Source of the DNA: Dactylellina haptotyla
Taxonomy: Eukaryota; Ascomycota; Orbiliomycetes; Orbiliales; Orbiliaceae
Assembly (NCBI GenBank): GCA_031310005.1
Contig: CM062387.1
Span: 868,001 to 932,000 of the forward strand
Direction of reading: 5' to 3'
DNA: 64,000 nucleotides
Shown here: piece after piece, positions 37,240 through 56,306 of the stretch
Layout of the letters: each line of letters starts with the position of its first letter
How positions within the stretch are numbered: the stretch's first letter is position 1
Notes under the pieces: model-generated
The model's input: the letters and a program-made list of their open reading frames with translations, nothing else
What the model was told of the DNA's origin: nothing
The model's database searches: none
Made by a program: the position numbers and the translations under genes

Positions 37240-38536
37240 ATGGCAGGTGCTGATATCAAATGGGAGGACCTCAGTTCTCCCTTTACACCATCAAGGACGA
37301 GGCACCCGAGGATTTTCCAGCAGCTATTCGATTACATTCAATATACTCCAAGACTAAATCATTCCGAAAAGCGGATATTGAAATCTCTGATATCACATAC
37401 TCCAAACGAGAAATTCTTTTTAAACTTTAGAATTCTAAACAGCGCCCAACTCAAGATTCTCCATGATCTTACTGTCGCGGCCCTGAAGAACCTTCGAAAC
37501 GCCCTGAGTCGAAGCTCCTCAATGTACGATACCCCGGGAAGCCAATCGCCCACCGGAACAGGAACCAATTCCCCGACAAGTCCACAAGACCTATCCGTTA
37601 CTGAGGCTCAAGGTATTACCAAATCCTGATAGTTGCCGAAAGGGACAATGTTGCAACTCCAGTGCTTAGATCAAATACTAACGTTGCGATGCGAACTCAC
37701 TAGTTCTTGAATTACTGAGGCTCTTCGAAATGAAGGACGATGACAACAAGCTACCAACTGAGAAAGTCTCCAGGGATGCGAAGTTTGTGCAGCTTTGCAG
37801 AGAAAGAGAGAGATACGCATGTATCGTAACCACATTTGATTCAGCAGTCAGTTGCCAGGTTGCCCACTTATTTCCATTTTCATGTTTGAATTTGGCTAAT
37901 ATGATCAATGGTTTAACCTGGCAATTCCTCACTCTCTTCCTCGGTGAGGAGAATCGAAGGCTTCTCATTTCGAAGGTCGTCACAGAGGATAAAAACATAC
38001 ATGGTCCCCAAAATGGGATGATGCTACTCTCAGCACTTCACACCTTCTACGATGTGGGTGCTTTCTGTTTAGTCCCCGTCAAACGCTCGATCGGCGCACA
38101 TACCGGGTATTTTCTAGAGGCAAAATGCACCCTATATGCCGATTTTGATACTTTGAATGCGACGGTTTCTCGTACACCCGAAGATCCTGACGATCAATGT
38201 CAACTCGACCCCCAGGGCTTCCCTACTACTCGCAATATGCTACAATTAAAAGAAAAACGAGATCTTGAGCACGGTGATAGAATTCGAATATCCACTCCCG
38301 ATCCCGCGATTTTGCCATTACCCTCTCAAACACTTCTGTTTTGGCAGGAACTTTTTTGGAACCTCTGGGGAGACTGTGGCATTCGCACAGGGAGGACCAT
38401 GCAAGGAGGAGACAGCGCCTGGGACGATGAAGTATATCAGGAAGAAGACGTGGACGAGGAGATGTCTTATCGAAGACGTCAAGCTGTCAAATCTGTGGCC
38501 GTATGGTGCGAATCAGTTAGACAATCGCGTGTATAA
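37240..38536 (+). CDS. Fungal HNH-nuclease-like protein
   Basis: Two exons, 37240-37612 and 37704-38536 (91-nt intron), giving 401 aa. The intron was placed because the upstream frame ends in TEAQ and the downstream one opens with VLELLRLFEM in matching phase. Exon 1 has a helical N-terminal module and a Ser/Thr/Pro linker. The HNH-like core follows: YACIVT (about residue 160), QVAHLFPFS (about 176), an aromatic stretch WQFLTLFLGEE, then NGMMLLSALHTFYD (about 228). The first His (AH), the Asn and the last His (LH) of the H-N-H trio are all present. The canonical fungal form (VTG...CHI.PF...NLI.LS...H..W) is somewhat eroded, so activity is uncertain. The family is common and variable in Pezizomycotina; its role is unknown. 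Confidence 0.75.
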
Positions 38537-46697: not shown

Positions 46698-48101
46698 ATG
46701 TCTCCTGACGACTACACCGTAGGATGGGTATGCGCCCTCGACATAGAGCTCGCTCCTGCCCAGGAGATGCTCGACGAAGAGCACGAGAAACTTCGCCGGA
46801 CAACCCACGACCAGAATATATATACACTAGGACGGATCGGCAAGCACAACGTCGTTATCGCCACCTTGCCCAGCGGGAAAACTGGTATAGGTGCCGCCGC
46901 GGTGGTCACCAGCCGCATGAGGCAGACGTTTCGGTTTATCGAATTCTGGTTGCTCGTGGGTATTGGAGGCGGCGTGCCCAGTCGGAAAGCAGATATTCGA
47001 CTCGGTGATGTAGCCGTCAGTCGGCCGGAAGGGATCCACCCCGGAGTGGTCCAATGGGACTTTGGAAAGACCAATCCAAATGGCTTCGAAAGGACAGGCG
47101 CCCTTAACAACCCGTCGCTGATTTTACTCTCGGGGCTTACGCACATTCGGTCCAGGTACGATAGGGGGGGATCAAAATTAATGGAATACGTTGCCAACTT
47201 TCCCGGCCCGAAATATGCGCGCCCGGATATAGAGGATATTTTGTTCAAATCCGAATACAACCATGTCGGCGAAATTGGGTCCGAATGTACTGAGTGCGAT
47301 CAACAGAATAGAGTCAACCGGCGACGACGAACCAATGAGGCAGCGGTTCACTACGGTACCATAGCGTCGGGCAACGAGGTTGTCAAAAACCCAGTACTAA
47401 GAGACGCTATCAGTGCGTCACTAGGCAATGTCGTATGTATTGAGATGGAGGCGGCAGGCTTGATGAACGATTTCCCGTGTCTCGTCATCCGAGGTATCTC
47501 CGACTATGCCGACTCGCATAAGAATGATGACTGGCAGAGATACGCTGCATTAACAGCAGCGGCCTACGCGAAGGATCTGCTCGCCGAAATAACACTACCG
47601 GAAACCCTCAAGCCTGAACTCAAACCTGAGCCCAAGCCCAAACCCAAACCCGTCGCTACAGCCAGTTCTTCAGGTTTTAGTCCGTACAGCCGCTCAGGTA
47701 GGAATACTCCGAATGAGCCAGACAGGCTTAGCAGGGCGATGTACCGACCTTTCGGGAATGTGAAGTGTTTTGCCTGTGGGGACTATGGACATTATGCAGA
47801 TGACTGCAGGAACACCTGCGACAGCTGTGAGCGAAATATCATTCCGAGATTGCATAGTAAAGCCAGAATTCGCTAACAGAAACCCGGAGCGTAGGCGGTG
47901 ATTCGGGTCATACGGCAAGGGATTGCACCCGTCGACCAGGCGATTCCTGCTTTAGATGTACGTCCATCCCCTTTCTGATCCCCAAAAAGTACCAGAGTGA
48001 TGTATTAATTCCTATCTGCTCACGCAATAGGTGGAAAACGTGGTCATTGGGCAGAAACGTGCTGGGTAGATTTAGACCGGCAGCCCCGGTACTATTACTA
48101 A
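46698..48101 (+). CDS. PNP_UDP nucleosidase-like domain fused to three CCHC zinc knuckles
   Basis: Three exons: 46698-47826, 47895-47957 and 48031-48101 (introns of 68 and 73 nt), giving 420 aa. Residues about 5-300 are the nucleoside phosphorylase/nucleosidase domain used as an N-terminal effector in fungal NLR-like proteins. Visible motifs: YTVGWVCALDIELAPAQ, LPSGKTGIGAAAVV, LLVGIGGGVP, DIRLGDVAVSRP, GTIASGNEVVKN and CIEMEAAGLMNDFPCLVIRG, then ISDYADSHKNDDWQRYAALT. A Lys-Pro linker at about 304-318 follows. Three CCHC knuckles come next: CFACGDYGHYADDC (357-370), CDSCGDSGHTARDC (374-387) and CFRCGKRGHWAETC (395-408). Both introns split a knuckle cysteine codon, which fixes their positions. 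Usually this domain is followed by NACHT/NB-ARC and repeats; here nucleic-acid-binding knuckles take that place. Related PNP domains in bacterial Detocs and in eukaryotic immune proteins cleave ATP. A role here is inference. Confidence 0.88.
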
Positions 48102-54059: not shown

Positions 54060-55306
54060 TCAGGCGGCCTGTCCATCTCGGACAGCACCATCTCTCGCCA
54101 ACTTGTCCGCCATTTCATTCCCGACGACTCCCTTGTGTCCATTGACCCACTCAAACTTAGTTTTCGCTCCGCCTTGTGTAATCCTCTCCTCAATTCGCAG
54201 CAAGATCTCTTCAATAATGTCTTGGTTTTCAACGGGCTTTCCGGCAGAAGTCTGCCAGCCGTTCGAGCGCCATTTCTGAAACCAATCGGTAACGCACTGA
54301 ATCGCATACTTGCTATCCGTGAAGATCAGAACCTCGCGGTGTTTTGGGGCAATCTCGATGGCACGGAGTATAGCGGAGAGTTCGGCACGGTTGTTGGTAG
54401 CCTTGGGGTCGTTGAGAGGTTCGGAGAGGTTTCTACACAAGTCTAGTTAGCTTTGCATCTTCTTTAAAACCCGAAGAGTTTCCATAAGTACCGCTTATCC
54501 CCCGGTCCGAACCAGATGCCCACACCAGCTCTCGCGCTCGCACTCCCGTTCATGAGCGAGCTACCATCTGTATAAATCTTCAAAACCGCCGTCTTCTTGG
54601 GAACCAACACGTTTCTCATCAACTTTGGCGACGACCTCTTGACCACGTTGCCCGACGTCTCAATCTCTACTTCCTCCAAAATGTTGTCATCCAGAATCTC
54701 GGACTGCTCTTTGCCATCTTCATGCAATCCTGCATCTCGGAGATCCGAGTTAAGGTCGTCACTACCGAGAATACTCTCGATAGCGGTGCTGCTCCTTCTA
54801 CTCCCGACGGTTCCAGCGCCGGATGTCTTGCGGCGCGTGTTCCTACTATCCTCATCCTCTCTCGAATCTACTCCGGCGGCGGCAGCGGCGGCAGCAGCAG
54901 CATTGGCAGCGCTCACGCTCTCTGCGAGGCCGCTGTGCTCCCCAACACCTCTAACAAATGCTTCAGCCTCTTCCCTCGTCGAAAACTGCCTGAACTTTGG
55001 GTTCTTGACGCCGACGACGTGTTTCTGACATTCCTCCCAGCTGGTGTAAACACCCGGTGTGCCGCCACTCCGGACGCCGTAAAATTTGGGGACATACGAC
55101 GGGCTGTTTGGGTCTGTACTCGGGTCTTTTCCGGAGAGGTAAAGTTCCGCCTCCTGTTGGGTTGTGAAGCTTTTGAATTCAGCCTTTTTGAAGCCGGTAA
55201 CTTGGGCGAGACAATCCGGGTAAGTCTTGTAGATGCCTGGGGTGAAGCCGGTGCGGACGGCGTAGAATTTGGTGGTCTCAGACGCTGGGCGCTTTCGTTT
55301 GAGCAT
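54060..55306 (-). CDS. RNH1: RNase H1 with two hybrid-binding domains
   Basis: Two exons, 54492-55306 and 54060-54432 (59-nt intron), giving 395 aa. Two RNase H hybrid-binding domains: FYAVRTGFTPGIYKTYPDC at about 12-58 and FYGVRSGGTPGVYTSWEEC at about 75-120. An Ala run and a Ser/Arg-rich linker follow. The catalytic domain starts at LKIYTDGSSL (about 239) and has all expected acids: Asp in YTDGSS, Glu in NNRAELSAI, Asp in IFTDSKYAI and Asp in GNEMADKLA, plus His in NGHKGVVGN. It cuts the RNA strand of RNA-DNA hybrids in nucleus and possibly mitochondria. I start at MLKRKRPAS because no ATG lies upstream in frame; a 49-residue open extension there is Arg-rich and could matter for mitochondrial import. 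Confidence 0.93.
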
Positions 55307-56306
55307 CCTGAGGACCGCGAGGTTATAACCGCGAAGGAGCCTTGCGAGGGATGGAGGACGCGGGATGGCTACGGTCGATGTCCACTTTTTAGATCTCAGT
55401 GGAGAGAGATGGCGGTCGAAAGGGTATAGAGGAAGAGGAGATAACGAGTGCAAGCGCGCGCACTAGAGGGGAGCGAGATGGTAGGATAGTAAAAGACGAG
55501 TCCGATTTGGGGTATGCCGTCTGGAAGTAGCGGGCGAGGTGCGTACGCTGTGGGAGCTGCAGTTTGTCGAATTAGCGACTGCTGCTCATCGCAGGGCTGA
55601 GCAAACAAACAGGAAGCTTCACCTTTCCAAACGCTACGGGATGCAGTTCTGGGTAGGTGCACAGGATGCAAGTGATGCCCCGGGGCTGCGGAGGCCGCGG
55701 AAGTCGTGAGAATCACGGTTGGTAAGAGCAATGGGGTGGTGGTGAGCGGGAAAGTCGAGGCGGGCGGGAAGAGATGAGGTTGGAAACGGAGAGGAGGAGA
55801 GGAGACTGGCACCCCGGCCGACCTCCCCGCAACACATCCGCTCAGACCACCCCCCGCGATATAAATTTACGGACACAGCCCCCCCGTGCGATTGCAACGG
55901 CACTGGTACGATGTATACGTTTTCTTCTTTCCTTTATTGTTTCATTCACTCAGTCCATTATGTACACAGAATAATAGTAGAAGTAGTAGCAATGGTGGTA
56001 ACGCAACGGCGCTTCGCTTCACACAAAGGAAACATGAATCTATTCCGCCAGGTAGTTCAATCGCCTCTATCAGTTGCAACAGTAACAAAAGAGTCCCGGT
56101 TAGCTGGCTCTTTCAGCGCAATCGTGTACATGCGGCGTTTTTGTTGTTTCGCCGTCGTAACAGACGAATCTAGCGTCTATATTTGTCAAGTAATGGTCAT
56201 ATGTTGGCGATTCTATTAATTTCCAAGCACCAAAAAAAAAGATGAAACGAGCGACCCAGTCTAGGGAGCAACAGCAGGGCAAAACCCGAAAATACGACTT
56301 CCCTTC
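55307..56306. other. Intergenic region, RNH1 promoter side
   Basis: About 1 kb. It includes an open, ATG-less, Arg-rich extension of the RNH1 frame up to about 55453, preceded by a pyrimidine tract and a CTAG acceptor-like site. The rest is AT-rich with no gene. Confidence 0.5.

What the first reader, a model, noticed from the sequence alone, without database searches (positions are those of the whole stretch)
46698..48101. PNP_UDP effector-type domain joined to three CCHC zinc knuckles
The N-terminal domain matches the nucleoside phosphorylase-like domain that sits at the head of fungal NLR-like proteins (EMEAAGLMNDFPCLVIRG, DYADSHKNDDWQ). The NACHT/NB-ARC switch and repeats are missing. Three clean CCHC knuckles, each C-x2-C-x4-H-x4-C, follow a Lys/Pro linker. 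PNP domains from bacterial Detocs and eukaryotic immune proteins are reported to destroy ATP. A protein coupling such a domain to single-stranded nucleic-acid-binding knuckles could be a direct nucleic-acid-sensing nucleosidase. The domain calls are strong; the coupling and role are inference.
Basis: partly seen in the sequence, partly recalled or inferred. Interest (0 to 1): 0.82.

Follow-up and report, generated by a model that had tools for sequence, protein, structure and literature searches.

The report
Fungal nucleosidase with zinc-knuckle tail
A gene of what is probably a nematode-trapping fungus joins an immune-type enzyme that probably breaks down nucleotides to three small zinc modules of the kind that grip single-stranded RNA or DNA; the same pairing occurs in other fungi and may be a direct nucleic-acid alarm.

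The parts
46698..47826 (+). exon 1: PNP domain, linker, knuckle 1, first residues of knuckle 2
   Evidence: one open frame from ATG; spliced model
46719..47543 (+). PNP_UDP_1 (MTAN-fold nucleosidase) domain, aa 8-282
46746..46748 (+). Glu17, aligned with the MTAN active-site Glu (E. coli Glu12)
   Evidence: E in 219 of 225 aligned domains, gap in 6
47448..47450 (+). Glu251, aligned with the MTAN ribose-binding Glu (number 174 in E. coli recalled)
   Evidence: E in 222 of 225; alignment to MTAN chains
47502..47504 (+). Asp269, aligned with the MTAN catalytic Asp (E. coli Asp197)
   Evidence: D in 223 of 225; alignment to MTAN chains
47604..47762 (+). Lys/Pro/Ser-rich linker, aa 303-355; pLDDT under 50 at 322-354
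47766..47807 (+). CCHC knuckle 1 (aa 357-370)
   Evidence: motif, Pfam zf-CCHC
47827..47894 (+). intron 1, 68 nt, phase 1, inside the second Cys codon of knuckle 2
   Evidence: GT-AG, CTAAC at 47873; same junction in the D. haptotyla model
47817..47926 (+). CCHC knuckle 2 (aa 374-387), interrupted by intron 1
   Evidence: spliced motif
47895..47957 (+). exon 2, 63 nt, symmetric phase 1-1 exon: rest of knuckle 2 to start of knuckle 3
47958..48030 (+). intron 2, 73 nt, phase 1, inside the second Cys codon of knuckle 3
   Evidence: GT-AG; same junction in the D. haptotyla model
47948..48062 (+). CCHC knuckle 3 (aa 395-408), interrupted by intron 2
   Evidence: spliced motif
48031..48101 (+). exon 3: end of knuckle 3, C-terminus, stop

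Best explanation
An intracellular, NACHT-less immune-type effector of filamentous fungi. The N-terminal MTAN-fold domain removes the base from a small nucleotide or nucleoside (most likely ATP or another adenine nucleotide) once it is activated. The flexible linker and the CCHC knuckles are the input: they bind single-stranded RNA or DNA and so recruit or cluster the enzyme on foreign or misplaced nucleic acid (mycovirus, retroelement, or nucleic acid set free by damage or incompatible fusion). Clustering switches the nucleosidase on and kills or stalls that hyphal compartment. Shown: gene model, both domains in one frame, intact triad, nucleosidase fold, recurrence, kinship to PNPs of conflict systems and of NACHT genes. 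Inferred: nucleic-acid binding (from the knuckle family), substrate, activation by clustering, immune role.
For: Gene and domains. Fold and triad. Not an MTAN equivalog: best NCBIfam model 73.8 bits against a cut-off of 169. Bacterial relatives: EAD2 conflict adaptor in 4 of 10 scanned, and 1 of 10 fused to a SIR2/pAgo-associated protein. K-x3-W after the catalytic Asp is shared by the fungal domains (K 219, W 225 of 225) and 9 of 11 bacterial relatives, and is absent from E. coli MTAN and the three MTAN chains printed. Similar PNPs stand before NACHT in this genome, 16 of 73 loci, and before NB-ARC in one more. Knuckles match HIV-1 nucleocapsid, an RNA binder, best in PDB. Recurrence with 1-6 knuckles.
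Against: No biochemical, expression or phenotype data. CCHC knuckles can also bind proteins. Knuckles sit on 11 of 221 listed relatives and on 1 of 70 PNP loci read in this genome, so most PNPs do without them. The PADLOC defence-effector match (58.8 bits) does not count: housekeeping E. coli MTAN scores 54.6 bits with the same model. ATP cleavage is reported for Detocs; the primary paper is not held and I could not test ATP against MTA/SAH. No defence partner was seen beside the gene; the neighbour is eIF2D. A genome paper on D. haptotyla lists the phosphorylase superfamily among expanded families under fungal virulence factors (PMC3828140, one passage), which points to another possible role.
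Confidence: 0.4

Rival explanations
1. PNP effector of an NLR network: the knuckle tail is an adaptor or decoy that pairs it with a partner protein, like the C-terminal amyloid motifs of single PNP_UDP effectors; nucleic acid is not sensed directly.
For: Single PNP_UDP effectors with a C-terminal signalling motif paired to NLRs are published (PMC9815663, passages). Zinc fingers (C2H2 and treble clef) were found in 57 Sordariales NLRs, 52 of them C-terminal, and proposed as sensors or decoys (PMC12258605, passages). Four of 10 bacterial relatives carry EAD2 adaptors at the same end.
Against: No PUASM-like pattern in query or relatives, 0 of 222 by a simple regex without a positive control. Nearest NACHT or NB-ARC match on this contig lies over 450 kb away, though published pairs are not always adjacent. 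Knuckles are chiefly nucleic-acid binders (established knowledge).
Confidence: 0.26
2. RNA-tethered nucleosidase: the knuckles place the enzyme on host RNA or ribosomes, or hold it off, rather than sensing non-self; the role is local nucleotide or SAH/MTA turnover, or some step of predation.
For: Knuckles resemble nucleocapsid and other cellular RNA-binding knuckles; nearest solved folds are MTA/SAH nucleosidases; a 2014 survey predicted MTA/SAH activity for fungal PNPs (PMC4986451, passage); the family is listed among expanded virulence-type families of D. haptotyla (PMC3828140, passage).
Against: NCBIfam scores are far under the MTAN cut-offs; about 73 loci here, at least 16 with NACHT downstream, unlike a housekeeping enzyme.
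Confidence: 0.21
3. Degenerate or mis-modelled gene: the knuckle frame is not what is translated; as in the annotated D. haptotyla protein another frame is used, or the tail is decaying.
For: The D. haptotyla model P0001 reads this stretch in another frame, which is open through both introns.
Against: The knuckle frame gives three motif-exact knuckles continuous with the PNP frame; annotated proteins in other classes read PNP plus knuckles. Of the two differences from D. haptotyla visible in this stretch, one is silent in the knuckle frame and one changes a non-ligand residue (inferred).
Confidence: 0.05
4. N-glycosidase acting on the bound nucleic acid itself: knuckles present RNA and the nucleosidase fold removes bases from it.
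For: Domain pairing only.
Against: MTAN-fold enzymes act on small nucleosides and nucleotides in a closed pocket (established knowledge; fold).
Confidence: 0.04

Closest known systems
PNP_UDP effector domain of fungal NLRs (with NACHT or NB-ARC and ANK, TPR or WD40)
   Same: same PNP family; this genome has 16 of 73 PNP loci with NACHT close downstream
   Different: no NACHT/NB-ARC and no ANK/TPR/WD repeats in this protein; knuckles in their place
Single PNP_UDP effectors with C-terminal amyloid motifs (PUASM, HRAM; PMC9815663, passages)
   Same: NACHT-less PNP with a short C-terminal module
   Different: the module is zinc knuckles; no PUASM-like pattern by regex
Detocs PNP effector (bacterial ATP nucleosidase; PMC11249213 glossary passage)
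   Same: PNP superfamily; nucleotide-destroying immune effector proposed
   Different: no two-component partners; substrate untested; primary paper not held
Bacterial PNP-EAD2 proteins (L080, L081, L084, L085)
   Same: PNP then a C-terminal module; K-x3-W after the catalytic Asp
   Different: EAD2 instead of knuckles; 28-32% identity
MTA/SAH nucleosidase (MTAN, Pfs)
   Same: fold and catalytic Glu/Glu/Asp
   Different: no K-x3-W in E. coli MTAN; far under the equivalog cut-offs
CCHC zinc knuckles of nucleocapsid and CNBP-type proteins
   Same: C-x2-C-x4-H-x4-C knuckles in tandem
   Different: attached to an enzyme, not to Gag or only to other knuckles

Membership tests
PNP_UDP_1 (PF01048) | Pfam gathering score | tested here: met
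   35.8 against 25.1 bits for the whole protein; six-frame genome search gave only a 24.4-bit piece
MTAN-type nucleosidase mechanism | catalytic Glu/Glu/Asp | tested here: met
   E17, E251, D269, kept in all 13 knuckle-bearing rows
MTA/SAH nucleosidase equivalog | NCBIfam curated cut-off | tested here: not met
   NF004079 73.8 against 169; TIGR01704 22.2 against 73.8
zf-CCHC (PF00098) | Pfam gathering score and C-x2-C-x4-H-x4-C | tested here: met
   38.4 against 20.8 bits, three stretches, three exact motifs
fungal NLR | NACHT or NB-ARC domain | tested here: not met
   none in the protein; no NACHT or NB-ARC match within 450 kb on its contig
fungal NLR | C-terminal ANK/TPR/WD40 repeats | tested here: not met
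single PNP effector with amyloid motif | PUASM or HRAM motif at the C-terminus | tested here: inconclusive
   PUASM-like regex 0 of 222, no positive control; HRAM not tested
Detocs / ATP nucleosidase | cleaves ATP to adenine and ribose-5'-triphosphate | not testable with these tools
   needs an enzyme assay
Detocs | three-gene two-component system | tested here: not met
   fungal gene beside eIF2D; no such partner among the 20 of 39 long ORFs scanned
defence effector by PADLOC model PDLC00759 | match that separates it from housekeeping MTAN | tested here: not met
   58.8 bits but E. coli MTAN scores 54.6: the model does not separate them
single-stranded nucleic-acid-binding knuckle protein | binds ssRNA or ssDNA | not testable with these tools
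   similarity to HIV-1 nucleocapsid only

The most novel reading that the evidence does not exclude
PNP-CCHC proteins are one-polypeptide nucleic-acid sensors of fungi: the knuckles bind viral or retroelement RNA directly and switch on an ATP-destroying nucleosidase, a receptor-effector with no STAND switch. Knuckles are added or lost as symmetric phase-1 exons, so the number of RNA contacts evolves like the repeats of NLRs.
Probability: 0.24. Interest if true: 0.85.

Novelty: new variant of a known kind. Interest (0 to 1): 0.57.

Why it matters
Fungal immunity is described mostly through NLRs that switch on an N-terminal effector; how fungi detect mycoviruses or foreign nucleic acid with protein sensors is open (my general knowledge). 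A recurrent fusion of a common nucleotide-cleaving effector type with a nucleic-acid-binding tail makes direct sensing testable with one purified protein, and would add a eukaryotic counterpart to bacterial effectors coupled to nucleic-acid-recognising systems.

Tried and rejected
Chance motif: rejected; the frame is continuous and Pfam scores both domains above cut-off. Knuckles as a separate gene: very unlikely for knuckle 1 (one open frame), unlikely for 2 and 3. Loss of catalysis: rejected. Plain housekeeping MTAN: disfavoured. Nearby NLR partner or defence island: 20 of the 39 ORFs of 180 aa or more were scanned with Pfam and show no NACHT, NB-ARC or second PNP. Single origin of the pairing: on a quick tree of 92 PNP domains (13 knuckle-bearing, 29 own-genome, 50 of the 199 others) the knuckle label needs 7 changes, at least 3 forced by starred branches, and one clade is rejected (p-AU 7e-80); but many neighbours are fragmentary metagenome models, so gains cannot be told from losses or from missed 3' exons. 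A tail-only search answered that no candidate shares three words, so whether knuckles also ride on other fungal effector domains is unknown. All protein searches listed only the best 120 and only proteins of 231-735 aa, so a longer PNP-NACHT-knuckle protein could not appear. A first tree lost own-genome loci on the minus strand because I read them in the wrong orientation (13 of 28 kept); one search corrects this; the own-genome column rests on those same 13. The own-genome knuckle scan looks for unsplit knuckles, so a tail whose every knuckle is cut by an intron would be missed.

Literature: PNP_UDP with zf-CCHC, 0 papers; zinc knuckle with nucleoside phosphorylase and fungal, 0. In the listings (top rows only, titles and starts of abstracts) I saw nothing on the pairing; papers listed there that hold both CCHC and NACHT (for example PMC11412873, PMC3218866) were not opened. 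Only open-licence papers are held, so this is no proof of absence from print.

Full report
WHAT IS THERE. The window (G000:C9:868001-932000 of a 39.8-Mb, 11-contig genome) is fungal; the closest listed protein is from Dactylellina haptotyla, an Orbiliomycete, so the fungus is most likely a close relative of that nematode-trapping species (inference). At 46698-48101 (+) a three-exon gene encodes 420 aa. Exon 1 carries the PNP domain, the Lys/Pro linker, knuckle 1 and the first three residues of knuckle 2 in one open frame of 376 codons. Introns of 68 and 73 nt, both GT-AG, each interrupt the second cysteine codon of a knuckle after its first base. The 63-nt middle exon is therefore a symmetric phase-1 unit that begins and ends at the same point of a knuckle.

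IS IT REAL. Pfam places PNP_UDP_1 at 8-282 (35.8 bits, cut-off 25.1) and zf-CCHC three times (38.4 bits, cut-off 20.8) on the spliced protein. In the six unspliced frames of the whole window the strict motif occurs twice, one of them here. Six-frame genome searches see the gene poorly: a 24.4-bit PNP piece under the cut-off and none of the 16 listed zf-CCHC matches. The annotated D. haptotyla protein P0001 ends with this same DNA, spliced at both introns but read in another frame, apparently through one more upstream intron that I take to be spurious. Two relatives give weak support for the same intron position elsewhere: P0017 ends in CFNCK and P0207 reads CGKCM, as would happen if a gene model ran into a donor starting inside that cysteine codon (inference from protein letters; DNA not seen).

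RECURRENCE. Searches with the whole protein and with residues 245-420 (only the best 120 of 7998 and of 6462 are listed, and only proteins of 231-735 aa can appear) gave 221 distinct relatives; 11 of 221 have CCHC knuckles, 1 to 6 each: Dendryphion nanum, Arthrobotrys megalospora, Aspergillus taichungensis (six), A. campestris, A. candidus, Mytilinidion resinicola, Pyrenochaeta sp. and four unnamed sequences (P0017, P0130, P0171, P0207). These span Orbiliomycetes, Dothideomycetes and Eurotiomycetes (the classes of Pyrenochaeta and Arthrobotrys are recalled). Pfam on 10 of the 11 (P0207 not scanned) finds PNP above cut-off in 10 of 10, zf-CCHC above cut-off in 7 of 10 (P0130 18.4 and P0171 20.2 bits are under 20.8, P0160 none), and NACHT or NB-ARC in 0 of 10. 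Two of the 10 carry DUF3597, one of these also DUF7104 repeats. On a tree of 92 PNP domains the knuckle label changes 7 times, at least 3 by well-supported branches, and a single clade is rejected. So the pairing is either old and often lost or made more than once; incomplete gene models prevent a choice.

IN THIS GENOME. The PNP search gives 98 matches, which with two places I grouped into 73 loci. Sixteen of 73 have a NACHT match within 2 kb downstream on the same strand, and one more has an NB-ARC match about 330 bases downstream (C6:641914-642834 with C6:643166); both are lower bounds. Of 73 loci, 70 were read in six frames with 1.5-2.5 kb downstream; only this gene has a standard knuckle. 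Loose matches at two other places (one of them seen in two overlapping loci, L002 and L056; the other in L064) lack the knuckle spacing. Three loci could not be read. The flanking gene is eIF2D (SUI1, WH_eIF2D).

BACTERIAL KIN. A scan of bacterial and archaeal genomes gave 13 loci. Two (L079, L082) look like fungal contamination (53% and 62% identity; inference). Ten of the other 11 were scanned (L086 was not): PNP in 10 of 10, EAD2 at the C-terminus in 4 of 10, SIR2 and an ATPase-like domain in 1 (L091), whose best PADLOC match is a pAgo-associated SIR2 protein; 5 of 10 show PNP alone. After the catalytic Asp, 9 of 11 share K-x3-W with the fungal proteins (fungal K275 in 219 and W279 in 225 of 225); E. 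coli MTAN and the three MTAN chains printed do not. Published work reads EADs as coupling adaptors of conflict systems and the PNP superfamily there as a possible generator of a signal by base release (PMC7159879, passages). Thus the same enzyme type is joined, at the same end, to NACHT, amyloid motifs, EAD2 or knuckles.

MECHANISM. The knuckles are best matched in PDB by HIV-1 nucleocapsid, and knuckles of this kind bind single-stranded nucleic acid in well-studied cases (established knowledge). The most economical model is input through the tail: nucleic acid gathers several copies, the nucleosidase becomes active, and adenine nucleotides are destroyed. ATP as substrate rests on Detocs, read only in review passages (PMC11249213; PMC10197012); a 2014 survey predicted MTA/SAH activity for fungal PNPs instead (PMC4986451, passage). 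A D. haptotyla genome paper lists the phosphorylase superfamily, and NACHT, among expanded families and files the former under fungal virulence factors (PMC3828140, one passage). The chief rival is an adaptor role inside an NLR network.

KNOWN OR NEW. PNP as NLR head, single PNP effectors with amyloid tails, and zinc fingers of other types in NLRs are published (passages only). In the main text of PMC9815663 and PMC4986451 the terms CCHC and zinc do not occur; PMC12258605 lists C2H2 and treble-clef fingers, and CCHC does not occur in its main text. Joint searches for PNP_UDP with zf-CCHC, and for zinc knuckle with nucleoside phosphorylase and fungal, gave 0 papers. I rate it a new variant of a known kind.

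The E. coli MTAN control removed one argument; confidence in the best explanation went from 0.42 to 0.40 and the novel case from 0.25 to 0.24.

Noticed in passing
window 46698-47826, residues 189, 197, 200: An H-x7-C-x2-C set in the PNP insertion is kept in 213, 222 and 221 of 225 PNP domains: a possible further zinc site in the whole family.
   Followed up: partly
window 54464-55462 (-): ORF with two RNase H1 N-terminal (Cauli_VI) stretches, 132.8 bits; such domains are known to bind RNA:DNA hybrids (recalled).
   Followed up: no
window 37682-38536 (+): ORF with an HNH_2 endonuclease-like domain.
   Followed up: no
L091:3953-7564: Bacterial PNP in front of a SIR2 protein that PADLOC assigns to pAgo systems: a PNP possibly tied to guided nucleic-acid recognition.
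   Followed up: partly
L079 and L082: Records titled Deltaproteobacteria and Bryobacterales MAGs carry PNP genes 53% and 62% identical to the fungal one; probably fungal contamination.
   Followed up: no
P0001 (D. haptotyla H072_6062): The annotated C-terminus reads the knuckle exons in another frame, so domain counts from databases miss this architecture.
   Followed up: yes
P0122 (Aspergillus taichungensis), residues 366-471: Six knuckles, several nearly identical 18-residue units, suggesting recent tandem duplication.
   Followed up: no
PADLOC model PDLC00759: This 'Effector, PN-superfamily' model scores housekeeping E. coli MTAN almost as high as the fungal PNP (54.6 and 58.8 bits).
   Followed up: yes
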